Origin: Diaporthe sp. PMI_573
Lineage: Eukaryota; Ascomycota; Sordariomycetes; Diaporthales; Diaporthaceae
Reading direction: 5' to 3'
NCBI GenBank assembly: GCA_021399435.1
Contig: JAJTUP010000063.1
Span: 186,001-250,000, forward strand
Length of the DNA: 64,000 nucleotides
The translations under genes were made by a program, and so were the position numbers. The notes under the pieces are model-generated. The model was not told where the DNA came from. It was given only the letters and a program-made list of their open reading frames with translations, and ran no database searches. Each line of letters opens with the position of its first letter. Position 1 is the first letter of the stretch. Shown piece by piece: positions 42,259 through 64,000 of this stretch.

Positions 42259-45200
42259 ATGGCGACCACTTCCAACATGTTCCTGTACTCCCTGACGATC
42301 CAGCCGCCGTCGACCATGACACAGGCCATCCTGGGTCAATTCTCAGGCACCAAGGAGCAGCAGATCATCACGGCCTGTGGCTCGCGTCTTTCCCTCCTGC
42401 GGCCCGATCCCACCCAGGGAAAGGTCATCACGCTGCTCTCCCACGATGTCTTTGGCATCATCAGGTCCGTCGCCGCCTTCCGCCTGGCAGGCAGCAACAA
42501 AGGTAAGCCCACCCTCTTCGCAACCCACTCCCCTTCTTAAAGCGTGGGCTCTTAGTGATTCAAAGCCGGCCTGCCAGATCTATCGCCAGTCCCAACATGA
42601 TCGGGCTGTGTCTGTCTTTGTACGAAGGGCCCATCTCATGTCCCAGGCCTTTGCTGATAACGGTCGCAGACTACATCATCCTGGCCACCGACTCTGGTAG
42701 GATCGCCATCGTCGAGTACCAACCGTCGCAGAACAGGTTCACGCGGATCCACCTCGAGACCTTCGGAAAGTCGGGGATCCGCCGTGTCATCCCGGGCCAG
42801 TTTCTCGCAGCAGACCCAAAGGGCAGAGCGTGTCTTATCGCGTCCGTCGAGAAGAACAAGCTCGTCTACGTCTTGAACCGTAACTCTCAGGCAGAGCTCA
42901 CCATCTCCTCCCCCTTGGAGGCCCACAAGCCTGGCGTCCTTGTCTTCTCCCTCGTGGCCCTCGACGTCGGCTATGCGAACCCCGTCTTCGCCGCCCTGGA
43001 GACCGAATACATGGAAGCGGACCAGGACTCTTCAGGCCAAGCCGCCCGGGAGGCGGAAACGCAACTGGTGTACTATGAGCTCGACCTCGGGTTGAACCAT
43101 GTGGTTCGCAAGTGGTCAGAGCCTGTCGACCCCACCTCGAGCCTGCTGTTCCAGGTCCCGGGAGGCAACGACGGCCCTTCGGGTGTGCTTGTCTGCGGAG
43201 AGGAGAATGTCACATACAGACACTCCAACCAGGAAGCTTTCAGAGTGCCCATTCCACGGCGGAGGGGCGCAACAGAGGACCCCCAGCGCAAGCGCTCCAT
43301 TGTTGCAGGAGTCATGCACAAGCTCAAGAACAGCGCCGGTCTTTTCTTCTTCCTTCTCCAGACCGAAGATGGAGACCTGTTCAAGGTGACCATTGACATG
43401 GTCGAGGACGCCGATGGCAACGCAACTGGCGAAGTCGAGCGCCTGAAGATCAAATACTTTGACACCGTTCCGGTCGCATCTAGTTTGTGCATCCTGAAGA
43501 GCGGGTTCTTATTTGTCGCGAGCGAGTTCGGGGACCACCGGTTCTATCAGTTCGAAAAGCTTGGTGATGATGACGAGGAGCTCGAGTTCAGCAGCGACAA
43601 CTTCCCGACCGACCCGCAAACGGCCTACGAGCCAGCCTATTTCCATCCCCGGCCGAATGAGAACCTAGCTCTCGTTGAGAGTGTCAACTCAATGAACCCC
43701 CTCTTAGACGTCAAGGTTGCAAACCTCACAGACGACGACGCGCCACAAATCTACGCCGTGAGCGGCAATGGCGCACGCAGCACATTCCGCACGCTCAAAC
43801 ATGGCCTCGAGGTTAATGAAATCGTGGCATCGGAACTCCCTGGCACGCCATCGGCAGTCTGGACCACGAAGCTTCAGAGCGACGACCAATTTGACGCGTA
43901 CATTATTTTGACGTTCACCAACAGCACTCTGGTGCTCAGCATCGGCGAGACTGTTGAGCAAGTCAGCGATACTGGATTTTTGGATTCAGTCCCGACTCTC
44001 GCCGTGCAACAACTCGGAGATGATGGTCTCATTCAGGTCCATCCGAAAGGAATAAGACATATTCGGAGCGGCCGAGTAAATGAGTGGAGCGCACCCCAAC
44101 ACAGATCCATTGTAGCCGCAACCACGAATTCCAGACAGGTCGCCATCGCCCTCAGCTCCGGTGAGATCGTCTACTTCGAGATGGACGAGGATGGGTCGCT
44201 GGCTGAGTACGACGAGAAGAAGGAGATGTTCGGGACTGTGACGTGTCTGAGTCTCGGAGATGTCCCTGAGGGCCGGCAAAGGAGCTCCTTCTTGGCCGTA
44301 GGCTGCGACGACCGCACGGTTCGCGTGCTGAGTCTGGATCCTGACTCTACCCTCGAGAACAAGTCCGTTCAGGCGTTGTCTGCAGCTCCATCGTCGCTGT
44401 CTATCATGGCGATGGAAGACTCGGCCACTGGAGGGTCGACCCTCTACTTACACATTGGCCTGCATTCGGGCGTCTACCTGCGGACGGTCCTGGATGAGAT
44501 CACGGGCGACCTGACAGATACTCGACAGAAGTTCCTGGGCATCAAGTCTGTCCGGCTGTTCCAGGTGACCTGCCAAGGATCAGTCTGCGTCCTCGCCCTC
44601 AGCTCCCGGTCGTGGCTTGGTTACGCCGACCCCCTCACTCGGAGCTTCATGATGACGCCCCTTGATTATCCTGAACTGGAATGGGGCTGGAGTTTCAACA
44701 GTGAGCAATGTGTGGAGGGCATTGTAGGTATACATGCCAACTATCTGCGGTCAGTATTTTTTACCTTTTCACAACAACACCCCCGTAAATTTCATGATGA
44801 TAAAAGGGATACCGACCGCCTTTTCTGGCTATGAGGCCTTGTAATCTTTTTAGATTTCAATTGTTCCTTCTGATGATACCCACAATCCCCGAGATTCTGC
44901 CGTTGCTACCTGTGTCGCATTTATACTGACGGCGTAGTAGAATCTTTTCGATCGAGAAGCTCAGTGAAAACCTGATTCAAAAGTCGATACCACTTACCTA
45001 CACTCCCAAAAAACTGGTCAAACATCCCGAGCAGCCTTATTTCTACACTATCGAGGCCGATAACAACACATTGCCTCCGGAGTTGAGACAGCAACTACTG
45101 GCGGATCCAGGGGTTGTTAATGGCGACTCCACAGTCCTCCCACCAGAAGACTTCGGATACCCTCGAGGACGTGGACGATGGGCATCGTGCATCAATGTAG

Positions 45201-49962: not shown

Positions 49963-51108
49963 TTCGAACAAGATCTCTCTCTCCCTCTCTCTTCTCCTCG
50001 TGGCCATCTACCTAAGATGCAAAAGTACTACCTGACTGGACTGATTGTCGTGGGAATCACCTACCTACTCATTCACCGCTTCGACAGATCACTGCTGTTG
50101 CACTGCTGCCCAAATGGATCAGACTCATTACCCTCACCCAAGGCGAAGTTTCAAAATATCACGATATTGTATGCAGACAGTGAAGAGTCTGCCGGCAGGT
50201 ACAGCTAGCTAGTCAGGCTTATGTAACGTGATTTTAATTTTCAATTGCAGAATACTAAAGCATGTTCAATGTTGACAGTCTGATGTAAGCTACCTGCCAT
50301 GACATCTGGAGAGTGTTGCCAGCGGGCATCAATCAAGGTTGAGCCTCTTACGGCATATGTTGTCTCATTCGGTCAGCTTGTCATTCCCGAGAACGGGATT
50401 ACCTAGTTAGTCTTATGTCCGTTGTCAAGTTCCACACGTATCCTTAGAGCCGAGTTGGTCGACCATGTAGCTGTGCATTTTTCTCATCCCCGCGATCACC
50501 GGCTGGTGCATGCCGCTGATGTTGGATATACCGCATGTGTTCTTCCCAAATAGGAGTAACTCCGTCCCCGTCGTCCTTCCCAAATGGGAGTGACTAAGTA
50601 CTCTCACGCCCGCCCTCACCCCACATGGCTGCATGCTTCTCGATGTAAAATAACAGCACGGTGCTGCAACCAAACCTTTTCTTTTACTGTCACAGTTGAA
50701 AGCAATAATTTCCCTGTCAGGAGACATCCACAAATAAACAATAATTGATATCATGCCAATATCCCAATGTTCGAACCAAATATGGAGCTTATTCCAGTAA
50801 TTATGTATAAGAAGTTTTGCATGCACATTGTGGAGGATACATATGCAGTTCCCATTTCAGAAAATGCTTCCACCTCACCCAGATTGCCACACAATATAGT
50901 CTTCACTTGTGTGCTGACGACATCTCCGCATGGATACAGTCAGACAAGCTTTCCAATAGAGAAGGAGGCAGAGTAGAGGCGCTAGGAATTTGATATAAGA
51001 GGCTATCGTAGCTGGCCATTCGTGTAGCATCTCCAGCTTGCGTCGAAACTGCCATTGGACACTAAGCTTCAGATCAGATCCAAAGATTTTGCATGAGTCT
51101 TCGCACTC
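49963..51108. other. 1.15-kb intergenic region with a 20-bp direct repeat
   Basis: Between two plus-strand genes. It contains two near-identical 20-base copies at 50542-50561 and 50576-50595. No gene is supported. Confidence 0.6.
50542..50595 (+). repeat. 20-bp direct repeat, 34-bp period
   Basis: CTTCCCAAATAGGAGTAACT (50542-50561) and CTTCCCAAATGGGAGTGACT (50576-50595) differ at two positions. They lie 0.5 kb upstream of the laccase start. The pair could be a decayed duplication or a double regulatory site. Confidence 0.7.
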
Positions 51109-53457
51109 ATGTCTTGGATAGTTGGTTCCGTTCGCAAGCAACTGGTGCTTATCGCACTGGCTGCAACCACGTTGGGCACACATGTGGTGGCTACCGCAGA
51201 GCCGCGCATGTCAAGCCTTGGGACTTTTTCCGCGCCCATATTTTCACACACGAGAGTTGGCCGATCAACAGAAACGGTGAGCCCTGCAACCTGCCCATGC
51301 CTCCTCACCCCAGCACCCTGCTTCCCCCCCACGACACACGCATATATTGAACCCACACCTCGAGATTACATAACATGTTCCCGGGGAACCGCTGACCATC
51401 CGAGAAGACGGGAACTCCTTGGGGAAATGTTACTGCCGATCTCCAAGACCCGGATCAGATTCCAAGTACAGGGGTAACCCACCAGTACCACTTCACCGTC
51501 TCGCGCGCCAACCTCGCCCCAGACGGGGTCAACCGGTCCATGATCCTTATCAACGGGCAGTTTCCGGGCCCGACCATCGAGGCAAACTGGGGTGACATGA
51601 TAGAAGTCACCCTGAAAAACCAAGTAGTGGGGCCGGCCGAGGGCACAACCATCCACTTTCACGGGATCCGACAGATCGGTACACCATGGTACGACGGTGT
51701 CCCTTCGACAGTTCAGTGCCCTCTTCCCCCGGGCAGCTCCTTCACGTACAAGTTCCAGGCGGACGCTTACGGGTCAACATTCTACCACTCTCATTACAGC
51801 GCACAATACTCTGCCGGTGTTTATGGTGCAATGATTATTCATGGGTGCGTAACTGATTCCATCTCGCATCCGGAGGATCAATCTCAGCCCCTGGGAGACG
51901 TGACAGTAGGAAGCAGAGCCATGCACTAACACGCAGCCAGACCGAAGCACCCGAACGTAACTTACGACGATGACCTTGGCCCCATCTTCTTGGTCAGTCA
52001 CCCCTGTTCCTATCCCTTCACGCCGCAGACGCGCCCGTTGCCGGTGTCAACTCTATGTGACCACAGAAGTTGGGTGTCCAGGAACGGCCACTTGGATCTG
52101 CAATTAGCTGACCGAAAAATGTCTCTCCCAGTCCGACTGGTATCATGCAGACTACAACGAACAGGTCGAATTCACCGTGGGCTTGCCGGCCCCCATAACG
52201 CAACCGTACTCGGACAACAATCTGATCAACGGACGGATGCCGTTCGACTGCAGCAATCCTAACGTGACGGCGTACAACCTTACTTGCTCTTCCGATGCCG
52301 AGTACTCCAACTTCAGGATGACCAGCGGCAAGACGTACAGGTTGCGCCTCATGAACGTGGGCAGCCAGGGGATGCAGCGCTTCACCATCGACGGCATGAG
52401 CGTCACGGTGATTGCCCAGGACTTCATCCCCGTGGTACCGTACGAGACTGACGTCGTAAACATTGGCATTGGACAGAGGACAGACATCCTCGTCAAGGCC
52501 ACTGGGGGGCCTACAGATGCGCTGTGGATGCGGTCCGATGTCAGTCCGTCGTGCTCGACAAGCACTCAGGGGTTCGCCAAGGCTGCCATCTACTACCAAG
52601 ACGCCGACACATCGCGTCTGCCTGAGACGACGGCTACACCGTATGACGACAGCTTCTGTGGCAATGTTTTCTTAAACATGACGCGACCTTTGTACCCTAT
52701 GGATCCGCCCCCAGTCCCTGCGACCACGCTCCAGTTGGACATTCGATATGACTACAACGTCTCGGGAAACAGGCTGTGGTTTGTCAACAACGAGACATTC
52801 CGTGCTGACTTCGAGTAAGTGTCCGGGGCCAGTTCCACGACAACCCTGCCTGCCCCTGCCCCTACCTCTGTGTCCATACTCTGGATATCTGGGCTTTCAT
52901 TTATCTTGTCCCGTGCCTTTGTATACATCTGCTCTACCATCACTGCATGCTAACCTGGACGGTCTAGACGCCCCATCTTCCTGCTGGCCAAGGCAGGCAA
53001 CACATCATACCCAAACCCAGACTGGCTCACATACAACCTGGGGAGCAATAGCTCGGTCCGGATCATCCTCAACAACTACAGCATGACCAATCTAAGCCAG
53101 CATCCCATGCACCTCCACGGGCACAATTTCTGGGTCGTGGCAGAAGGGCTGGGCGAGTGGGACGGCAATGTCAACCTGGACAACCCTATGAGGCGCGACA
53201 CACATGTCCTCCAGCCCGGCGTCAGAGGCATCGGCGTCGGGTACCTAGTGATTGACTTTGTCTTGGACAACCCGGGGGTCTGGCCGTTCCACTGCCACCT
53301 GGCCTGGCACGTCAGTGCCGGTCTGTATGTGAATCTTTTAGAGCGTCCGGATGACATCGCGCAGATGGACGTGCCATCTAGTGTCTATCAGACGTGCAGA
53401 GACTGGACGGAATACCGGGGTGATGACCTTGTTCCTGAGATTGATTCCGGTGTATAG
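51109..53457 (+). CDS. secreted laccase-like multicopper oxidase
   Basis: Five exons, 51109-51276, 51408-51844, 51941-51992, 52132-52814 and 52968-53457, give 609 aa. A signal peptide is clear (QLVLIALAATTLGTHVVATA). All four copper motifs are present: HFHGIRQ, FYHSHYSAQ, HPMHLHGHNFW and WPFHCHLAWHVSAGL. In the last, the Cys is the type-1 ligand and Leu sits at the axial position. Cupredoxin domains 1-3 are in order, with several NxS/T glycosylation sites. Family members oxidise phenols and related compounds, reducing oxygen to water. The first intron (131 nt) is the least certain: CTGAC branch followed by an AAG acceptor 13 bases on. The mature N-terminus lacks the Cys-rich start common in ascomycete laccases. 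Its position beside the terpenoid genes makes a tailoring role possible, but independent lignin or pigment chemistry is equally likely. Confidence 0.88.
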
Positions 53458-54248
53458 GACTTGGTTCACATTCCAAGGTTGTCAGCGCTAGGAATACGTC
53501 TGCATGGATGACGTTCTGTGTATATTTTATATAATATTTGAGTAATGCAGGAGGCAATCTTTAGTCATGTTGGTCTGAAGCATTCGGGAACTCTGCGGTA
53601 ATCTCCACAATACGGGGCCGCTCCATGCTGTGGGCATCCGCCCCCACACCCTATCAATGATGGCTACTTCTGAACACAACTTTACGAATGATCAGCTCAT
53701 GCAACTTAGTACATCTTTTCCCCGGTGGGAAGTGATTCTGTGGGAATTGCACATGTTGTAGTAAAAAATAATGTCTCCATTTGATGTTTGCAGCAGATAA
53801 GGGAGCAAAGCGGGTCCACCAGGTGGCACAGGATACCTACCTACTCCTGCACCTGTACAGTGGTGGCTGCAAAATCTACTCCGTCAGGTTTGCAGCCAAG
53901 GAACAGTATCTGCAAGGGCAGAAGCTCCTGGTATCTGGGGCCATGATTATCGTTATTTACCTGTCCAGATACCTACCTAGGTGGGTATTTAGGTAAGATC
54001 GGGCGCTGAAATTTTCTTTCTAATCTTCTGCCACATCACTTTAGGCTATAGGTAGGAGCCACTACAGGAAAGCACTGAACTGAAGGAGGCTATCAACAAA
54101 GGTTATGGATAATAATTTAGTTAAGAATGCTATTGACATAAATCACTACTAATTCAACGCACACAAATGTTTTCGCATCCCAGTCCTCCGAGATATCTCT
54201 ATGCTCCTATGTGATGGCGAAAGCTTGCCTAGTAAGTGAGTGGATGTC
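53458..54248. other. 0.8-kb intergenic region
   Basis: Downstream of the laccase gene. It has TAGGTA/TACCTA-type short palindromic words (53965-54055), common in Sordariomycete intergenic DNA, and no gene. Confidence 0.55.
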
Positions 54249-54578
54249 TCACTTGCACACTGACCCAGTCGAAACAATGGAGAGCACAAAGGTTCCATGC
54301 CACAGTCTTCGGTTTCCTCCCCATGTGCCTCTCAGTTCCTTCATGTCGTCACTCAGTTTACCTTTGTAGAGCCAGCCCTGGCTTTCATAAAGTTTCACAA
54401 ACCACACATAGCTCAGCTGATCAACGAAACCGTTGAACCCAAAATCACCCCATTCATCTGTCCCAGAAGTCGAGAACGTGAGTACTTCCTCGTCCAAGAC
54501 CTTTGGATTGCCATTATCATAGATGTTGGTGGTCTTTGCTTTGATTTCGGGGAATCTCAGTGGTAGCTGGTTCTTCAA
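54249..54578 (-). pseudogene. calycin-like protein fragment
   Basis: A minus-strand open frame of about 110 codons without a convincing ATG at its head. Its second half has a pattern seen in small beta-barrel (calycin-like) domains of fungal proteins: GDFGFNGFVDQLSYVWFVKLY, then GWLYKGKLSDDMKELRGTWG and WHGTF. The alternating hydrophobic strands and the W-Y-G, GTWG and GTF turns look real, so this is probably the 3' end of a gene or the relic of one. I could not find an upstream exon. Function unknown. Confidence 0.4.
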
Positions 54579-55316
54579 TTCAGCTATTGACTGTTTTGTT
54601 TTTTTTTGGAAAAGGAGTCCGACCCTCCTTCAGCCAAGGCCACAAAATAATTGAGGCTCTGAGTCCACCAATCGTTCTTGGATCCTAAACGTTCCATTTT
54701 CAGGCGTGTCTCAAGTGCTAGCAGCTGAATGGCTGACCCCTACCTAGATTCCGGTAGAATCGTAAGATACCGTGACGTGTCTTAATAGTCTCACACTCTA
54801 CTGATTGACCTAGCGGGGCGTCTTGGAAGACGTCTTGTTTTCGTTGGAATCCAGGCGTGGAAATTGAGGTTACAAGTACCACTTTGCTATCTGACTCGGC
54901 CCAGAAGCTGCACTCATTTGCATACCACACTGCCCAAAACGTGCACACAAACTGCCATGTCATCAGCATTTTGTACGTCGCCTGCATTTAAATCACGTAC
55001 GAGTGAACAGTCATCCGGAAGGAGCGTTAAGTCACACACGCACCCTTCTATCTACCCCCTAATTCACCACTCTAGAACGGCATACGCATTATGTACACCT
55101 CTTTATATAATCGCCATTTTGGCTATGGATCTTGCTTCTTCTCTTGCCACCTAACAAGCCGTTATGATACGGATGGCTTCTAGTTGATAGTGTTATTAGT
55201 CAGCTACACCGAATATGTGTAATCTTGAACGAATTGAGAGACAGGGGCGGCTTTTTACAGACTTATAGTGCCAGCCCAACAACATATATACAATAGGGTA
55301 GAATATGACAAGACAA
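54579..55316. other. 0.7-kb intergenic region
   Basis: Downstream of the terpene synthase stop. It has a T run at 54595-54607 and AT-rich tracts near 55080-55300. No gene is recognised. Confidence 0.6.
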
Positions 55317-57563
55317 CTATACTCCCATCGGCACGATCACTGAGCCTTTGCTGGGCTTGCTGTTCTTAACACTGAGAAGCTTCAGTAATAGGTGCATCTG
55401 AGGATTCTCCTCCCCTGTGACGTTTTCCAACCCCCTAATCTCACTTTCGATCTCGTCCTCCATCTTGTTGAGCAGCTCCCAGCAAGCCTCAAAACTTCCC
55501 GCCTCTTGCAAGTACTCGATAATCTGAACCTTTGCAACACTGGGCATCGGGCCTGAACACCCGTTTCTCTGCCGGAAAAGACCCATGATCCGGTCGCGAA
55601 ATTTGGGGCTTTTCTCAAGGCAGTGGATGATGAGGTAAGAGAACTTTCCCTCGTCCAAGTCCTCACACCAACCCTTTTGATTGCTGTAATCGCGAGAGTT
55701 GAGGTTCATGTAGTCATCTCTGACCTGGAAAAAACGGCTGACCATGGATACCAGGGCATCGCAGACGAATTCCGTGCTGGAGCGAGGGCTAAGAGCCTGC
55801 ATCATCCTCACCAGCATCCGGAAAAGTCCGCCGGTCTTGAGGTCAATCATGCTGAAATACTCATCCTCCGTGGGCCACTTCATGTTATATTTCCAGTACA
55901 GATCCCAGCTTTGGCCGACGTGCAGATCCTCCAACTCCTCGAGGAGCACCGTCATTAACGCCGCGTTGCCAGTAGCTTGCACCTCTTGCACGACGCGTAC
56001 GTACAGGAAGGTGGCACTGTTAATGGACTGAGCCTCGCCGAAGATCAAATGTGATGCAGTCTTGCCACGCCGCATTGGAGAGTCGTCTTGGATGTCGTCA
56101 AGGATCAACGACGAGGTGTGGAGGAGATCGATGACACGCTTGATCACCGCAAGCTGTGCGGATGGAACCTGGCACCATTGGTTCATCGCATCGATGAGGG
56201 AAGAGCGCACTCCCTTCGAAGGCATGCTGCTGACGTAGTCGATAGGCTCATTGATTGCCGTCAGGCCCAGCTTCGGCATGTCATAATCCGAGCGCTTGGT
56301 GGGCTCTTCGGAATGTGAGCTCTGGCTCGTGATGTCGGTGGCATTGCCCGATGTCGCATCAAGAAAGTCATCGCTGTCGATGCTGGCAGTACTTGGGGCG
56401 AAGCTTGTTTCATGCGGGTCGTCCATCTTGGCAACTGAGGCATCCATACCAGTATCAGTTGGCTTGGCCTGCGTCGTGGGCAGGTGATATCGAGGAGAGT
56501 TAGCACTCCAGAAGCTCACACCGCCCGCCATGGACCCTGCAAGTTCAACTCGCTTCCGCAGGTACAGACGTGCTGAAGGATGATTCTCGTAGAACTGGGC
56601 TCGCAACCGAAGGTACTCGGCCTCATACCCCAATATCAAGTTTTTGATTCGATCCTTTCCTTCCTGGGCGGAGATGCCCTCCTTCCTCATGAGGACTGCA
56701 ACGGCATTGGTAAGGTTGTCAATCTTTTGACTTGCCTGGAAGTACTCGATGTCCCAACTCCAGTAGTCGTTGTTGAGCATAGCAGCCTTCTCAGCAGCCC
56801 AGACGAGGGGACGGATGAGCTTCTCCTCGTCATCTGAGAGCTTCTCACCGAGGCCGAATACGGTTTTGGTCCAGTAGATGCTGCTGATGTTAGCCAAGCC
56901 AGATTGTCTGCGAGGTAAACTTACTCAAGACCTGCACTGAGTCGTCTGAAATGAAGGTAGTCCTCCATCGTTTCCCACTCGACACCAGCCGCCAAAGGAG
57001 TCCAGCCAGCCTTGCAGCTCTTGACAAGATCCAAGCCGAGCTCTGAGTCTAACCTCATGAAGTCCAGCATGACCCTAGCGACCAGCTTCTTCTTCTTCAT
57101 GGACACCAAACCGTGGTCACGCTGAGAGACTTCGTCGAGCGAGTCCGTCATCGCCCCAGAGAAACCAGCCCACTCCTTTTGGGCGACTTCATCATTCTCA
57201 ACCTCTTCAGTTACATCTGTGATCATGCATTAGTGGTGTCTGTCAAAATATGGGCGGACAACGGAACGAACCATCGATCAAGAAGAAGAGATCTGTGAGG
57301 TAGGATATAGAGTCCAAGCGTTCAGGTATAGTCTCGCAGTAGATCAGGGAGCAAAAGCTTCCAACCGGAGAGAAGGATACTCGGTTCGGGTCTATGTCTT
57401 GAGTGCCAGTGTGTTCTGCCCAGTCTTTGAGCACACGAGAGGATGCTGCGTTTGCAATTTCGTCTCTGTTGTTGATCCTGACTGGCAGAGTTGTGAAACA
57501 GCCAGTCTGTCTGACCGTCTCCGGGTCAATTACAGTGGAATATTTCCACATTAATTCTTCCAT
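55317..57563 (-). CDS. bifunctional terpene cyclase-prenyltransferase (ophiobolin/fusicoccadiene synthase type)
   Basis: Three exons, 57563-57272, 57216-56925 and 56883-55317, give about 716 aa, the usual length of these chimeras. The N-terminal class I cyclase domain (residues 1-330) has DDVTE near 97-101, with its second Asp codon split by intron 1; the NSE metal motif NDYWSWDIE near 233; and a PRY element near the domain end. After an acidic Ser/Thr-rich linker, the C-terminal prenyltransferase (about 410-716) has the first Asp-rich motif LDDIQDDSPMRRG and the second as FFQVRDDYMNL, with DDxxN in place of DDxxD as is common in this class. The enzyme should build a C20 or C25 diphosphate from C5 units and cyclise it; the product cannot be predicted. 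Intron 2 has tandem CAGCAG acceptors (41 or 44 nt), both in frame, adding or dropping one Ser. It is divergent from the P450 gene. Confidence 0.92.
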
Positions 57564-58711
57564 TATTGAACAAAGTTGCCTGGCTGAGACTGGTGTTAAG
57601 TTGAGGATGGCGACGAGCTCTGAACTGTCTCTGTCTGGAGCTCGTGCTTGAGTGCAGTGTCTTTGTATCCCAACAATTCATTGTGACAACATCACATCAT
57701 GATGTGGAATACTGTACACATGAGTAGTGACCCTTGAAATGCAACATCGCGTATCAAGGGTCACCTTAATGCCGCCTCCCTTGTGTAGCCATGTCGATCT
57801 TAGACTTGTCAGATATCATCGCCTTTGTCGCTGCATCAGAGAATTGCTATGACTCGACTATCAAGAAGAGAGTACCCACAATAGGAGACCAAAATACACT
57901 ACTACTTATCGAAGACCTGTAATATGACTCGTGTGCCACACGTGGGCGTTTAGCAGAAGGATTGTGCACTGAACTCTGCTTTGGTTGGGTTCCCCTCAAG
58001 GATCAACGCCAACACCAGTAAGTAATACTGTTCTGCATCACACCGACCGCTGCTGGAGGTTCAAACAATGTTAGCACGCTGACGCAAATAATGGTGCATG
58101 GGTCAAGATTTTGTCTTCTTATCAAGATTAGATGATCGGCGTGGGATCGTACTCTTACTCAAACTCCCAGCAACACCGTGTCTCACAGCATCCGCGATTA
58201 AGTTCTTGCTCAAGTAACCAATTAAAGCTTGAATCAACCTCCTGATGGAAGTAGGACCCAAGCGGCTAATTGGGTCTCTACAAGCGAGAAGCGGATCATA
58301 TGGGGAGCACGAATGTTTGCACACACTTATCTATCGGCGGTTTTGTCAGTCAACCATGCCCAAAAATGGGGCGTCGGTTACCGGCACATCACCATGTGCG
58401 CTGCTAGTAGTTTTAGCCGTTGAAAATGAAATATTCTTGACTCATCACGCACTAAATTTGGTAGATAGTTGAGAATTCTGGTAAATTAGACTGCAACATG
58501 AGTAACGACCGTTTCACTCCCCATGGAGGCGTGGGGCTCTACCGAGTTTTGTATTTGGTGGATGAGAGATTTTCCCCGATGATGGAACCAGCACTTCAAC
58601 ATTAATGATCCCCCCCGGCTTGCAAAGACCAATGTAAATTTTGGCAACAGGATACAGAATTCGAACGGGCGCGTCGTAAGCCTCTTTCTAGTCTCAGAGT
58701 CTCGTTCAACA
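57564..58711. promoter_or_regulatory. shared divergent promoter region, terpene synthase and P450
   Basis: 1.15 kb separates the two divergent start codons. No gene is visible; frames are short. The divergent arrangement suggests co-regulation, typical of fungal secondary-metabolite pairs. I found no binding-site repeat that I would name. Confidence 0.5.
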
Positions 58712-60347
58712 ATGTCTTCAATGTGGCTGTTGGCCATCTGCGCCGTAAGTTACGCCGCCCGTTGATATTTTCTTTCTGACTAGGTGTAGTTTGTCGCATA
58801 CCGACTGTGCATCGTTCTATACAACCTCTTCATTCATCCTCTGAGAAACTTCCCGGGGCCATGGTACTATGCCGTTTCATGGCTTCCAAAGTTCTATCGC
58901 CAAGTTTATAGGGCTGATTACTGGAGGCACGCCAAAGTCCTTCATGAGAGGTACGGCCCAGTCGTGAGAGTCGGGCCGAACGAACTCTCCTTCTCGTCGG
59001 CCCAAGCCCTGGATGACATATACGGCGTCAAAACCAAGGGCAGGCTTGAGTTCCCCAAAGATGCAGTTTTTTACGACGTGCGAGGCACACCACTCAACGA
59101 CTCTATGATCTCAGCCGATCAGCCCACTCATCGTGCTCTGCGGCGGCAAGTCTCCCCCGCCTTTTCGGAGAAAGCACTCAAGTCTCAGGAGCCGATCATC
59201 CAGAGGTATGCAGACATGCTGGTCTCGGAACTTCGTGACAGAGTCGAGGAAGATGTAGATATAGTCGACTGGGTCACGTTTGCTACTGCTGATGTGATGG
59301 CCGACCTTTCCACTGGCGAATCACTTTACTGCATGGAGAAGGGTGAGATGGACCCCTTTGTGGACATGATCCTGAACGTCTCTCCGTTCATTGGTCTACT
59401 ACAGCTCTTCAACAGACTGCCTGTGACCAAGTTCTTGTACAAGACGGTTTCAAGCCAGAAAGGGTTGAAGACGTGGCTTGAAACGGTAGACATCGTTGCG
59501 CAGAAAGCTGAGAAGCGGGAGAGGATGGGCAACGATCGGCCTGATTTCATGTCGCTTATCTGGGCGGAGAACGACGACAGAGAGTCGTGGACGAGGGACA
59601 AGATCATCAACTTTGCTCAACTTCTGTTCTTTGCTGGAAGCGAGACATCCGCCACGACCTTGTCCGTCGTCATCTTTCACCTTCTGACCAATCCTCATGC
59701 ATACAAAAGGTTGGTCGACGAGATCCGATCAATTGAACGTGATGAGGAAATTACTTTCGCTAGACTGGCGACCACGGAGTATCTCACAGCTTGCATTGAT
59801 GAAGGCATGCGCATGCGTCCAGTAGTTGCAGCAGTGATCCCACGCGTTGGGCCTCCTGGCGGCGGCATGGTCGACGGTTGTTTTATTCCCGAAGGGGTGA
59901 GTACGTGCTCTTCTGCAAGCTGGGCCAGAGGGCTAATTCATGAAACTAGACTACTGTTGGTGTTCCACAATGGGCAGCACATCACATGGACTCCAATTTC
60001 TCAGAGCACACCTCCTACTTGCCTGAAAGGTGGTTGAAGTCTTCTGTGGACGATCCCCGCTTTGCCGCTGATCAGAAAGGAGCCTGTCAACCGTTCTCAA
60101 AGGGCCCGAGGAATTGTTTGGGGAAAGGGTGAGTGGCATGATAATTAATTCAATGAGTCCAAGGCGCTGACGGAAATGAAATAGGTTTGCCTATGGAATG
60201 ATGCGCATGTTCCTGGCGAAACTCATATGGCATTTCGATCTTGAGCTCAAGCCAGAAGATCGTGATTGGGATGTGAGGCCAAATTTCACTTCTGTTGTGT
60301 TCTGGGCAAAACCCAAGATGCATGTCAGATTAAGGCCAGCCAGGTAG
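58712..60347 (+). CDS. cytochrome P450 monooxygenase
   Basis: Four exons, 58712-58744, 58790-59896, 59950-60128 and 60185-60347, give 493 aa. The first exon codes only for MSSMWLLAICA and forms the N-terminal membrane anchor with the start of exon 2 (FVAYRLCIVLYNLFIHPL), followed by the proline-rich hinge NFPGPW. The I-helix oxygen-binding motif is FFAGSETSATT. The K-helix ExxR is EGMR in CIDEGMRMRP, and the PERW element is YLPERW. The haem-binding loop is FSKGPRNCLG with its Cys near residue 436. All introns are short (45, 53, 56 nt). The protein resembles fungal ER-bound P450s of secondary metabolism. As neighbour of the terpene synthase it is the prime candidate for oxidising the terpene skeleton. 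It is complete, with no broken motif. Confidence 0.93.
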
Positions 60348-60544
60348 TAACTTCGAAGTACTCTTCAACAGCTGGCATTTTAAATCGGAGACTCAGTTCG
60401 CGAATATGGCATAACACTTGCATTGATCTCGCATGATTGCTACATATAGTTCATACATGATTGCTCGTACAAAATAATCACCCTTGAGTCCGGACCTGCA
60501 GAGATAATACTATCGCCGTGATTCATAGCTGGGTGACTTCCTTG
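60348..60544. other. 197-base convergent spacer
   Basis: Separates the P450 stop (+) from the hydrolase stop (-). It presumably holds both 3' ends. Nothing else is seen. Confidence 0.7.
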
Positions 60545-61648
60545 CTAGAGATATGTGTCGAACCACCGGACGGCCTGTAAGAAAGCCGACTCTTTCGCAA
60601 ACACCTCTTCCGGGTTTGAAGAATTGTTCGCCTGCAAGTTCAGGATTTCGCCACGAAGTCCAAAACCATGGTTACTATTCCCATATACCACCGACTGGTA
60701 AGGAGCATCCGTGGTTCGACTGTTGTTCAGGGTGTCCACGATGTCATTTACCAAGTCCCTAGGCATCCTGTTGTCGATCTCTGGGTTTTCAATATGTCAG
60801 CAATGACCGGAGTGCATCATAACTTGAATTACGGCAGTCCTGTCACGATGACGAAATGACAGGAACATACCCGCAAAAGCATAGGTGATGGGCCCGGAGA
60901 CCAAGGCAATCTCGCCCAGAGTGTCGGCGACTCCAAACGAAGACTGGCTCGGCGTCACAGCAAAGGAGGCGTCGGCGCGAATGGTACGGTTCTCTGCGAG
61001 GAAGCGAGCCGAGTAGTATCCGCCGTAGCAATATCCGGCAATGCCGACTCGCGGGTATCCAAGCGAGTCGCGGACGTATTCCATGACCGTCTCAAGGATA
61101 GGGTCGACCACGTCGGGAAGGGGCCACCATGCGTCGAGATCGAAGTCTGGATCTGAAGTCAACGGATACGGTGCTGGGTCCCCCGAGAAGGTGTCCACGG
61201 CCAAGGTGAGGTACCCTGCTCGGGCGAAGCTATCTGCCATTCTGCACGCGTTCCTTCCCGCGTTAGCCCTGGGCCGGGAGAACACAAGGTTGGGGTTGAG
61301 GATCTTTCGTGCGACAACTGCTGCTGTATCGATGTATTCTGCTTACCGCAGCGCATAAGGGATTGCTAGTCCGTATATATCTGGGAGCAGCAAGACTGCT
61401 TTGTCGGCACGAGTTGAGATGTTGTTGGGTGGTCTTGCGAAATATACATGAACTAGTACGGGTAGAATTAGCTGTGTCCACACCCTGCAGAAACTTATCT
61501 TTGTTGAGTTCGACCGACCTCCGCTAACATTTTGCCGGCTGCCCTGCGGCTCCCCGTCATTGCGAAGCCAGGCAGTGTTCAGCAACTCTCCAGCAACAAG
61601 AGAGCACGAGCCCGCGAGGGCTACGTTGAGCAAAGTGGACGCCAACAT
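60545..61648 (-). CDS. secreted dienelactone-hydrolase-like alpha/beta hydrolase
   Basis: Four exons, 61648-61495, 61452-61347, 61253-60871 and 60780-60545, give 292 aa. A signal peptide is likely (MLASTLLNVALAGSCSLVAG). The nucleophile elbow is GIAGYCYGGYY with Cys near residue 161, as in dienelactone hydrolases, and the catalytic His is in GNSNHGFGLRG near 251. Other family features are VLLLPDIYGL near the start and DSFARAGYLTLAVDTFSGD. Introns are 42, 93 and 90 nt. The first is very short and in frame, and the second uses an AAG acceptor. An ATG at 61687 could extend the N-terminus by 13 residues. The family opens lactones or hydrolyses esters; a role in finishing a cluster product is inferred from position only. 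Confidence 0.85.
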
Positions 61649-62203
61649 GATTGGTAACGGAATAGCAGCACAGTTGCCAGTTGTCACTTGTTGTGTACAA
61701 AGAGCGTGATCTCGCCGGATGATTGTTATTTCCTGACTTTCATCCTCAAGTTATTTGTCAGAGGGCCTTGAGGCGTGCGCGTACGCTGACGAGGAAGAGT
61801 CTCATCCAAGCCGTTCTCTGTTGCATTTTCATTTCTTGTTCAAACCTAAAGACATAGCGATATGCTGTACATAATTAAGAAAGGGGTTCCTGGAGAATTC
61901 ATGTGCGTCGGACTGCTGGGCATGATTTTAAACTTTGTGCTGTCGCTGTCACACACAGGTGGTCACGACTGGGGTCACGGATCGTTTCTATGGACCCGGA
62001 GCGCTTTCTTGTTTATGAAAATAGCTAGGCACGCAATTATTTCTACAGGATGAAGGAAATGAGAATGATCTTGCTGCCGAGGGTGAAAAAAACCCACTTA
62101 TATAAACATATTGAGTCTTGGCAGTAAGCATTGTGTGGCCATCCACAAGTTTCTATTAAAAGTGGTTGGGCCAAATTCGCCGGATCGAGTCTTATCTTGC
62201 AGA
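61649..62203. other. 0.55-kb intergenic region
   Basis: Upstream of the hydrolase gene and downstream of the casein-kinase relic. No gene is seen. Confidence 0.6.
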
Positions 62204-62530
62204 TTAACTTGATCGAGCCATTGATCTTATCCACACCTCTCCAGGATGACGGCTCTGAAGTTCGTTAAATAGCCGTTCGGTCCAGTCGAACACCTTGTCA
62301 TATTTGAACCCCTTTCTGAAAAATAGTTGTCGAAATTTGGCTTGAAGATGCACGTAGTCGGGCTTCTGACCGTATGCAAGTGAGCGGATGTAATCAATAT
62401 ACTTGGCGAATTCGTCAGGCAAGTCCCTGCAAAGTTCTTTCCCCGACATGCTTGCTTTCTTTTGCCTGATTTTTTCCCGCTTACGTAGTAGGCCTCGTCA
62501 ACCGGAGGAAGACATAGATTATCCTCCTCC
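62204..62530 (-). pseudogene. casein kinase I C-terminal fragment
   Basis: The minus-strand frame ending at 62204 encodes KREKIRQKKASMSGKELC, followed by the CK1-specific end of the kinase domain: LPDEFAKYIDYIRSLAYG, QKPDYVHLQAKFRQLF, and YDKVFDWTERL. A TGA sits at the spot where casein kinases have the conserved Trp of the PWQGL segment. Just upstream, a kinase-like IYVFLR occurs in another frame. None of the ATP-binding or catalytic-loop motifs is present. It is therefore a 5'-truncated, frame-broken relic of a CK1-like gene. Several fungal lineages carry expanded, degenerate kinase families, and this may be one of those copies. Confidence 0.7.
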
Positions 62531-63168
62531 GAGCAAAAGTCGGAGACGGGTTGATCGCGGAGCACAAGGGATACAGATTGTGGACGTCGAAGGTGACAGT
62601 TCGACAAAGAGAGTCAAAACGACGAGCCAAAAATATGTATAGAGAATTGAGTTTCCTTTCTCTTTCTCTCTGGTGGTGGAGTCTTTTGTCTTTTGCTGGG
62701 GGAGGGGGCAGCAGAGGCAAGCAGCTGTGCTATGAGAAAGAAATTCGTCTATAATATATAGATGCGCAAAGGTTAGGGGCAGGCGTGTATATCGATCAAT
62801 CTAGACTAGATATTAGATGACTGCTGCGTTATCGTCATCAAGCTGGCTGAGGTATCTCCTACACATATTTACCTTTCTCATATGAGAATACTCGCGATGA
62901 CACTATGATTTGAATGGTATTTCGAGGGTGTGTCAGATTTCTATAAGCTCTCTAATCTGCACACTAGCACCATTTTTGTTCCCAGAGGGTGTCCATCGCC
63001 ATACTTTATTACCTATTACGGGCTCAAAGTTTAGTCACTAGAGCCATTTGTCAATATTGGCTACTACGCTTTCTGTCAATGAAATGGTGTCTGTCACTGT
63101 GCTCATGCTTTCAAGATCAGTCTGAGGCAGCTCATTAGACATGAAACATCCATCTTGCTCAAAATTAT
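62531..63168. other. 0.64-kb AT-richer intergenic region
   Basis: AT-richer than most of the window, with no open frame of interest. It lies between two degenerate elements. Confidence 0.55.
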
Positions 63169-63640
63169 TGTTGGGGTAGAATTCTAACTTTTCTGGACTT
63201 TTTGTCAGGTTGAAGGGTCACGAGTAGAGTGAATAGGTACACGCAGCGTAGGCACAGCGTAGAAGTGGTGTAGGAGCAGTGTGTAGAGGATAGAGAACTA
63301 CTGATCGTTGACTTCCTCCCTCCTTCCTTTCCATCCTTCCTTCTCCCTCCTTTTATAATTGAGGATGTCCCTCCCTCGCAGTGTGAGCCCTGCGTCCTCC
63401 CTGTGCTGGCACCCCGTCCCTGGGTTCCCTCATAGGTAAAGGTGGCTGGGGTGCTCCCTTCCCATAGCATGTGACAATGGTCCCTGACACTTTTCAAATA
63501 TAATGCAGTCTTATGAACTGGCCATTCCATCACAGTCGACTTGTATCGCCTTGAGAGGGCTGCAGAAAGATACTGAATCAGAACTATCCGCCTGAGCTTG
63601 AACTGCTGGGCTGCCGTGATCACGGCTTATATCATCGTAA
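63169..63640. mobile_element. possible solo or truncated LTR
   Basis: The segment opens with TGTTGGGGTAGAATTCTAAC at 63169, preceded by ATTAT, and holds a pyrimidine-rich tract (63313-63352) followed by a TATA-like TTTTATAATT, all features seen in fungal Ty1/copia-type LTRs. I could not find the matching CCAACA end or a second ATTAT target-site copy, so the right border is uncertain and the call tentative. A 152-codon minus-strand frame across it looks incidental. Confidence 0.25.
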
Positions 63641-63931
63641 CGATTTGTGAACCACCAGGCGACCCTCTGAGAACTCGTTGTCAGAACGCGAATGCCCTAG
63701 CCAGGACCGAGAGAAAGAGTTAGGACTGCTTACCTGGGAGTTTTGTGTGCAGTCGAATGTTCTCGTACCTGGAGAAAATGGCGGGTCACCAGCAGATCCG
63801 CAGTTCCAACGGTGGTCTGGAGGGGTCATGGGAACCACAGACAACGCATCCAGAGGCTGGAATTTCCACGGAGCTTTTGTTACTTCTACAGTAACGCTTT
63901 CCACAATTGTTGCCTCCGAGAAGTCTGCCAT
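63632..63931 (-). CDS. hypothetical small protein or 5' exon of a broken gene
   Basis: ATG at 63931 opens a 99-codon frame (MADFSEATIVESVTVEVTKA; WKFQPLDALSVVPMTPPDHR). A good donor, GTAAGC, follows CTQNSQ at about 63736-63731, and CTGAC plus CAGAG acceptor-like words lie 60 bases on, so splicing is possible. In either case a stop comes soon after, right at the edge of the LTR-like segment. I recognise no domain. It may be a gene cut short by the element. Confidence 0.25.
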   Translation of the reverse strand: MADFSEATIVESVTVEVTKAPWKFQPLDALSVVPMTPPDHRWNCGSAGDPPFSPGTRTFDCTQNSQVSSPNSFSRSWLGHSRSDNEFSEGRLVVHKSLR

Positions 63932-64000
63932 GTGGAATGATACGCTCGTCAGGAAACCCTTCCTAGCATCGTAGATTTCTGAAATCGAGTGCTTGTCTCT

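What the first reader, a model, noticed from the sequence alone, without database searches (positions are those of the whole stretch)
51109..61648. Candidate di-/sesterterpenoid biosynthetic cluster
A chimeric cyclase-prenyltransferase, divergent P450, dienelactone-hydrolase-like enzyme and laccase occupy 10.5 kb. The synthase needs no separate GGPP/GFPP synthase. The combination with a secreted Cys-nucleophile hydrolase and a multicopper oxidase is not one I recognise as a described pathway.
Basis: partly seen in the sequence, partly recalled or inferred. Interest (0 to 1): 0.75.

Follow-up and report, generated by a model that had tools for sequence, protein, structure and literature searches.

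The report
Fungal sesterterpene synthase with P450 partner
A plant-associated fungus carries an intact enzyme that probably builds a 25-carbon terpene, beside a P450 that probably oxidises it; the laccase and hydrolase next door look like unrelated neighbours, and the enzyme may have come from another fungal genus.

Summary
The synthase (55317-57563, minus strand) is a chimeric terpene synthase with all four metal-binding motifs. Of 26 close relatives, 11 are named: 9 Colletotrichum (67-88%), Diaporthe ilicicola (86%), Coleophoma (65%). Indirect evidence points to sesterorbiculene synthases (C25, type A cyclisation). The divergent P450 (58712-60347) is a likely partner: 3 of 6 full chimeric loci in this genome have a divergent P450 within about 1.2 kb. 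Laccase and hydrolase probably do not belong: the hydrolase's named close relatives are only Diaporthe, and in D. ilicicola it is on another contig than the synthase; none of 19 named laccase relatives is Colletotrichum or D. ilicicola; neither enzyme was found within 20 kb of the other five synthase loci. The unprecedented four-gene pathway is not supported; a synthase-P450 pair of known kind is. The Diaporthe synthase nests inside Colletotrichum (Colletotrichum-only clade rejected, p-AU 0.0001), suggesting horizontal transfer. Interest is modest.

The parts
55317..57563 (-). chimeric (bifunctional) terpene synthase, cyclase + prenyltransferase domains, 715 aa; exons 57272-57563, 56925-57216, 55317-56880
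   Evidence: acceptor of exon 3 set by homologues
57564..58711 (.). 1148-bp divergent intergenic region between synthase and P450 (putative shared promoter region)
   Evidence: gene models; same divergent arrangement at C197 (L028) and C196 (L029)
58712..60347 (+). cytochrome P450, 493 aa; exons 58712-58744, 58790-59896, 59950-60128, 60185-60347
60545..61648 (-). dienelactone-hydrolase-like protein, 280 aa, Cys150-Asp205-His240 invariant in 10 aligned rows; probably a neighbour, not part of the pathway
51109..53457 (+). ascomycete-type laccase, 610 aa, C-terminal DSGV; probably a neighbour, not part of the pathway

Best explanation
A two-gene sesterterpenoid module in a Diaporthe (probably strain PMI_573). 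The C-terminal prenyltransferase domain of the synthase builds a C25 diphosphate (GFPP) from C5 units, and the N-terminal cyclase ionises and folds it by a type A (C1-IV-V) cyclisation, most likely to sesterorbiculene or a close relative. The divergently transcribed P450 then hydroxylates or otherwise oxidises the hydrocarbon. The laccase on one side and the hydrolase on the other are resident Diaporthe genes between which the synthase (with or without the P450) sits; the synthase itself probably entered Diaporthe from a Colletotrichum-like donor. Shown: gene content, intact motifs, relatives, nesting in the tree, recurrent synthase-P450 pairs in this genome. Inferred: product, chain length, P450 step, transfer.
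For: 26 of 67 hits have 65% identity or more over at least 46% of the query; 11 carry an organism name: 9 Colletotrichum, D. ilicicola, Coleophoma. The cyclase domain's best solved relative is sesterfisherol synthase, 209 bits; fusicoccadiene synthase is next at 108. Three sesterorbiculene synthases are published, from C. orbiculare, C. gloeosporioides and C. incanum (table in PMC9605422); CoSS shares 70 and 77% with the two others of that product (PMC8307374 section 8). Stand-ins from the same species groups (group membership recalled) give, C. spinosum against SAR 10_70, 76.7% over alignment length or 82.2% over shared columns, and, C. spinosum against C. incanum (truncated record), 73.2% over shared columns. 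Tree and AU test. Divergent P450 at 3 of 6 full chimeric loci. No laccase or hydrolase match within 20 kb of the other 5.
Against: The sequences of the characterised sesterorbiculene synthases were not held, so the match is by species and by identity figures of stand-ins, and the agreement depends on the denominator chosen. Bit scores do not separate cyclisation types cleanly: stellatatriene (79) and astellifadiene (62-63) synthases, recalled as type A, score below fusicoccadiene (108) and variediene (93) synthases, recalled as type B. High identity does not guarantee the same product (PMC8307374 section 7). The P450 was not searched in other species. It is no closer to the P450s beside other chimeric synthases (34%) than to another P450 of the genome (38%). 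3 of the 6 loci (C133, C151, C112) showed no P450 within 2 kb in lists that scored only the best candidates.
Confidence: 0.66

Rival explanations
1. A genuine four-gene (or larger) cluster special to this lineage: the P450 oxidises the terpene, the hydrolase opens or forms a lactone or ester, the laccase couples or oxidises the product outside the cell.
For: The four genes lie within 10.5 kb with no other gene recognised between them; the hydrolase keeps an invariant Cys/Asp/His. A PF02458 acyltransferase lies about 6.7-8.2 kb right of the hydrolase (L009:4309-5872).
Against: Hydrolase and laccase do not share the synthase's named taxonomic spread and the hydrolase is on another contig in D. 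ilicicola; 0 of the 5 other full chimeric synthase loci have a match to either within 20 kb. A review of 52 fungal chimeric synthases has 0 occurrences of 'laccase' or 'hydrolase' in its main text (find counts).
Confidence: 0.1
2. A three-gene module: synthase, P450 and hydrolase, without the laccase.
For: The hydrolase and P450 are tail to tail at 196 bp.
Against: As above for the hydrolase: close relatives named only from Diaporthe, on another contig in D. ilicicola, best named Colletotrichum hit 34%.
Confidence: 0.12
3. The synthase makes a diterpene, like the C. gloeosporioides dolastadiene synthase CgDS (clade II-D), or a non-squalene triterpene, like CgCS of the same species.
For: Both are chimeric synthases from C. 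gloeosporioides (PMC9177416 passages), the species complex (recalled) of the 33-member relative P0003.
Against: Cyclase domain is nearest to sesterfisherol synthase; the next groups in the tree hold BtcA-type synthases (Pb1, C25) and a group with M. phaseolina and Colletotrichum rows that may be the Bm3 (C25) synthases, judged by species only. CgDS and CgCS sequences were not held, so this is not excluded.
Confidence: 0.2
4. No horizontal transfer: an old duplication in the common ancestor, with losses, makes the Diaporthe gene look nested among Colletotrichum genes.
For: C. tofieldiae and C. incanum, recalled as close species, fall in different subclades, so the Colletotrichum gene tree is itself not a species tree.
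Against: 88% identity between orders (orders recalled); would need several losses; Colletotrichum-only clade rejected (the group was named after a first tree was seen).
Confidence: 0.25

Closest known systems
Colletotrichum sesterorbiculene synthases CoSS, CgSS, CiSS (PMC8307374; PMC9605422)
   Same: Chimeric cyclase-prenyltransferase; the Colletotrichum relatives found here come from the same species groups with roughly matching pairwise identities
   Different: Here in Diaporthe; product not tested; characterised sequences not available for direct comparison
Two-gene PTTS + P450 clusters such as AcldAS/AcldA-P450 (asperterpenols A, B) and AuAS/AuAP450 (PMC9605422, passages)
   Same: One chimeric sesterterpene synthase with one adjacent P450
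   Different: Not shown to be the same synthase clade; substrate of this P450 unknown
Solved ascomycete laccase 3sqr (Botrytis aclada, organism recalled)
   Same: Full three-domain multicopper oxidase, 337 bits, C-terminal DSG end
   Different: Two changes beside copper ligands (F in IHFHG, F before HCH) not seen in five aligned relatives
Fungal dienelactone-hydrolase-like proteins (PF01738)
   Same: GYCxGG nucleophile and invariant Asp and His
   Different: A subfamily named only from Diaporthe, 34-44% to the other hits

Membership tests
Fungal chimeric (bifunctional) terpene synthase, PTTS | N-terminal class I cyclase with DDxxD/E and NSE motifs | tested here: met
   DDVTE and NDYWSWDIE in frame; PF19086
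Fungal chimeric (bifunctional) terpene synthase, PTTS | C-terminal prenyltransferase with two aspartate-rich motifs on the same chain | tested here: met
   DDIQD and DDYMN; PF00348 198.7 bits; full-length alignment to solved PTTSs
Sesterorbiculene synthase group | Falls with CoSS, CgSS and CiSS in a tree | tested here: inconclusive
   Only stand-ins from the same species groups available: 76.7% over alignment length or 82.2% over columns (published 77%), and 73.2% over columns of a truncated record (published 70%)
Sesterorbiculene synthase group | Makes sesterorbiculene from GFPP | not testable with these tools
   needs expression
Biosynthetic gene cluster of all four genes | Laccase and hydrolase conserved together with the synthase in other species | tested here: not met
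   limited to predicted proteins, capped candidate lists and one name per cluster
Biosynthetic gene cluster of all four genes | Co-expression | not testable with these tools
   no expression data
PTTS + P450 module | P450 adjacent and divergently transcribed | tested here: met
   window, and 2 of the 5 other full chimeric loci of this genome
PTTS + P450 module | Same P450 beside the synthase in other species | not tested
CgDS clade II-D diterpene synthase | Nearest to CgDS in sequence | not tested
   CgDS sequence not held
Ascomycete laccase | Four copper-ligand stretches and C-terminal DSG end | tested here: met
Dienelactone hydrolase family PF01738 | Score over curated cut-off; Cys/Asp/His triad | tested here: met
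   32.3 bits on one exon against 21; C150, D205, H240 invariant in 10 rows

The most novel reading that the evidence does not exclude
A Colletotrichum sesterterpene synthase moved into Diaporthe, landed between two resident genes, and this lineage recruited the Diaporthe-only hydrolase (perhaps the laccase too) into a new oxidised sesterterpenoid pathway that no other species has.
Probability: 0.08. Interest if true: 0.55.

Novelty: new member of a known kind. Interest (0 to 1): 0.27.

Why it matters
It places a probable C25 synthase of a Colletotrichum clade in Diaporthe, with Diaporthe-type genes on both sides, and so gives a small, testable case of a terpene synthase crossing fungal orders. 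It also shows how easily a four-gene 'cluster' can be read into an enzyme and its chance neighbours, and that divergent synthase-P450 pairs recur within one genome.

Tried and rejected
Rejected: the four-gene pathway as main reading. Contamination of the assembly by Colletotrichum: judged unlikely, because the synthase is on the same 321-kb contig, between a laccase 91% identical to one of D. helianthi and a hydrolase whose named close relatives are all Diaporthe. Base composition as a transfer signal: uninformative (third-position G+C 0.66 synthase, 0.60 P450, 0.69 laccase, 0.64 hydrolase, 0.69 for the long ORF at 42507). Sigma-70 promoter scan of the intergenic region: not meaningful for a fungus; 0 sites found. 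Literature: four searches combining bifunctional terpene synthase, Colletotrichum, Diaporthe, laccase, dienelactone hydrolase, P450, sesterterpene and gene cluster listed 20 of 289, 20 of 38, 18 of 18 and 15 of 41 papers; none by its title or start of abstract describes such a gene set. A search for horizontal gene transfer with Colletotrichum, Diaporthe and terpene synthase listed 5 of 5, all by title reviews on endophytes or fungi. Papers were read only in part: PMC8307374 sections 7 and 8 and passages; passages of PMC9605422, PMC9177416, PMC9409727, PMC12526002, PMC7414894, PMC9826473; of the rest only listings.

Results against my reading or limits: a single clade of window + D. ilicicola + P0009 was also rejected (p-AU 0.0098), since unnamed rows interleave, so one transfer or several cannot be told apart. 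The Colletotrichum-only clade was tested after a first tree had been seen. Of the 15 relatives without an organism name in the close set, 6 were put in the trees and 9 were not. Rows P0030 and P0032 were left out of the second tree, and P0031 (C. zoysiae, 40% identical, another synthase group) was not counted among the nine Colletotrichum rows. The synthase and laccase searches scored only the candidates sharing most words (7,995 and 7,993), hold only predicted proteins, show one name per cluster, and the laccase search was cut at E 1e-200; absence is therefore absence from these lists. The own-genome searches work exon by exon and list only matches at E <= 0.001.
Full report
Setting. The window is bases 186001-250000 of contig C178 (321,422 bases) of an 83.7-Mb genome in 217 contigs. 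It is a Diaporthe: the laccase is 91% identical to one of D. helianthi and the hydrolase's named close relatives are D. citri, D. ilicicola and D. eres. Contig C207 is 1,657,956 bases long, exactly the contig length given for a hydrolase of Diaporthe sp. PMI_573 (P0079), which matches C207 in five pieces at 97, 96, 92, 81 and 74%, read without regard to introns. I therefore take the genome to be Diaporthe sp. PMI_573 (listed as GCA_021399435.1 in PMC12526002, passage). This is an inference.

Observation. Gene models built from the sequence give four unbroken genes with GT..AG introns: laccase + 51109-53457; chimeric terpene synthase - 55317-57563; P450 + 58712-60347; dienelactone-hydrolase-like protein - 60545-61648. 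Pfam supports each. The synthase is a full cyclase-prenyltransferase fusion; it aligns over residues 9-698 with variediene synthase and 4-700 with fusicoccadiene synthase. Its own supply of prenyl diphosphate is simply the definition of this enzyme class.

What the synthase is. Of 67 hits, 26 have 65% identity or more over at least 46% of the query: 9 named Colletotrichum (67-88%), 1 Diaporthe (ilicicola, 86%), 1 Coleophoma (65%), and 15 without an organism name, one of them 99% over 68% of the query. C. chlorophyti is at 88%. The cyclase domain's best solved relative is sesterfisherol synthase (209 bits; fusicoccadiene synthase 108). The next groups in the tree contain BtcA-type synthases, which make the sesterterpene Pb1, and a group with M. 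phaseolina, C. zoysiae and C. tamarilloi (P0028, P0031, P0032) which, judged by species alone, may be the Bm3 synthases MpBS and CfBS. Three sesterorbiculene synthases are known, from C. orbiculare, C. gloeosporioides and C. incanum (table in PMC9605422); the first shares 70% and 77% with two others that make the same product (PMC8307374 section 8); which figure goes with which species I infer. The same species groups (membership recalled) are in the present clade. C. spinosum, of the orbiculare complex, against SAR 10_70 gives 76.7% over alignment length but 82.2% over shared columns; against C. incanum 73.2% over shared columns of a truncated record. Sesterorbiculene is C25H40 and was assigned type A cyclisation. 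I put about 0.65 on a sesterorbiculene-like C25 product.

The P450 is probably a partner. It is divergent to the synthase across 1148 bp. One search finds six loci in the genome where both cyclase and prenyltransferase parts match: the window, C197, C196, C133, C151 and C112. Two of the other five, C197 and C196, also have a P450 immediately divergent to the synthase; so 3 of 6. With the most generous count of P450 candidates (817 in the first look) a P450 within 2 kb on either side is expected at about 4% of places, so 3 of 6 has a chance of about 0.001 (arithmetic by hand). At C112 the nearest listed P450 is about 3.4 kb away, at C151 about 9.5 kb, and none is listed near C133; these lists scored only 88 of 817 and 87 of 602 candidates. 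The review of fungal sesterterpenoids describes two-gene synthase-P450 clusters (PMC9605422, passages). What the P450 does to the hydrocarbon is inference, and its presence beside the synthase in other species was not tested.

Laccase and hydrolase are probably bystanders. Ten of 67 hydrolase hits are at 61% or more; the three with an organism name are D. citri, D. ilicicola and D. eres; the one named Colletotrichum hit is 34%. In D. ilicicola the hydrolase is diail_4449 on a 98,272-base contig and the synthase diail_2044 on a 142,401-base contig; contig breaks could in principle part neighbours, but both genes would have to lie at contig ends. D. citri, D. eres and D. helianthi are not named among the synthase hits; clusters show one name each, so hidden members cannot be ruled out. 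Of 24 laccase hits at E <= 1e-200, 19 are named, none from Colletotrichum or D. ilicicola. In the own genome, no hydrolase match (27 matches, 37 of 37 candidates scored) is on C197, C196, C133, C151 or C112, and the nearest laccase match to those five synthases is about 46 kb away, on C112 (41 matches, 43 of 43 scored). So 0 of 5 have either within 20 kb.

Transfer. In a tree of 33 rows the window gene, D. ilicicola and six rows without organism name share a 12-row clade (100/99) with C. chlorophyti, SAR 10_70, C. spinosum and C. tofieldiae, and C. truncatum, C. incanum, C. cereale, C. eremochloae and C. falcatum lie outside. In a second tree of 21 rows the same holds (100/99; with C. truncatum 97/97), and forcing the nine Colletotrichum rows into one clade costs 34.9 log units, p-AU 0.0001; the group was named after the first tree. 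Since the gene sits on a contig between Diaporthe-type genes, contamination is unlikely and horizontal transfer is the simpler account, though hidden paralogy remains possible: C. tofieldiae and C. incanum fall apart in the tree. No housekeeping yardstick was available. A fragment in D. amygdali (P0051) is fused in its record to a transporter and lacks the cyclase domain and a stretch with the first aspartate-rich motif; with the two intact Diaporthe genes this suggests a patchy spread in the genus.

Beyond the window. To the right lie a transferase (PF02458) at about 68.3-69.9 kb in window count, a Myb-type factor, an amino-acid permease, a copper amine oxidase, a HET protein and short-chain-dehydrogenase-type proteins. 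The transferase could in principle belong to the pathway; nothing here links it.

Verdict. A new member of a known kind: a probable sesterterpene synthase with a P450, likely acquired from a Colletotrichum-like donor. The proposed unprecedented four-gene pathway is not supported.

Noticed in passing
L009:4309-5872 (contig C178, about 68.3-69.9 kb in window count): A PF02458 acyltransferase to the right of the window, followed by a Myb factor and an amino-acid permease; possible outer edge of a cluster, nothing links it.
   Followed up: partly
G000 C197 (L028) and C196 (L029): Two more divergent chimeric synthase-P450 pairs in the same genome, with pieces at 25-46% identity to the window's synthase.
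   Followed up: yes
window 51109-53457: The laccase has F for W in the IHWHG copper stretch and F for L just before HCH, unlike five aligned relatives; effect on the copper sites unknown.
   Followed up: no
G000 C4:98706, C179:258085, C139:857049, C200:183825; also C192:167066, C140:866988, C192:31512, C214:202540: Near-identical scores and frame lengths of a weak multicopper-oxidase match at four places and of a P450 match at four places, suggesting recent duplication or carriage by repeats.
   Followed up: no
G000: At 83.7 Mb the genome is well above the 51.5-63.6 Mb given for 11 Diaporthe species (PMC9409727 abstract, seen).
   Followed up: no
window 50000-64000: G+C falls from about 0.57 to about 0.50 around 48-50 kb; five intergenic stretches here are 0.42-0.47.
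   Followed up: partly
P0051 (Diaporthe amygdali): Synthase fragment fused to a transporter, lacking the cyclase domain and one catalytic motif; a decayed or misannotated copy.
   Followed up: partly
P0040, P0043, P0044, P0049: Chimeric synthases whose records also carry an FAD-binding oxidase domain (PF01565), named from Colletotrichum karsti, Alternaria panax, Neofusicoccum parvum and Stemphylium lycopersici; real fusions or merged neighbours.
   Followed up: no
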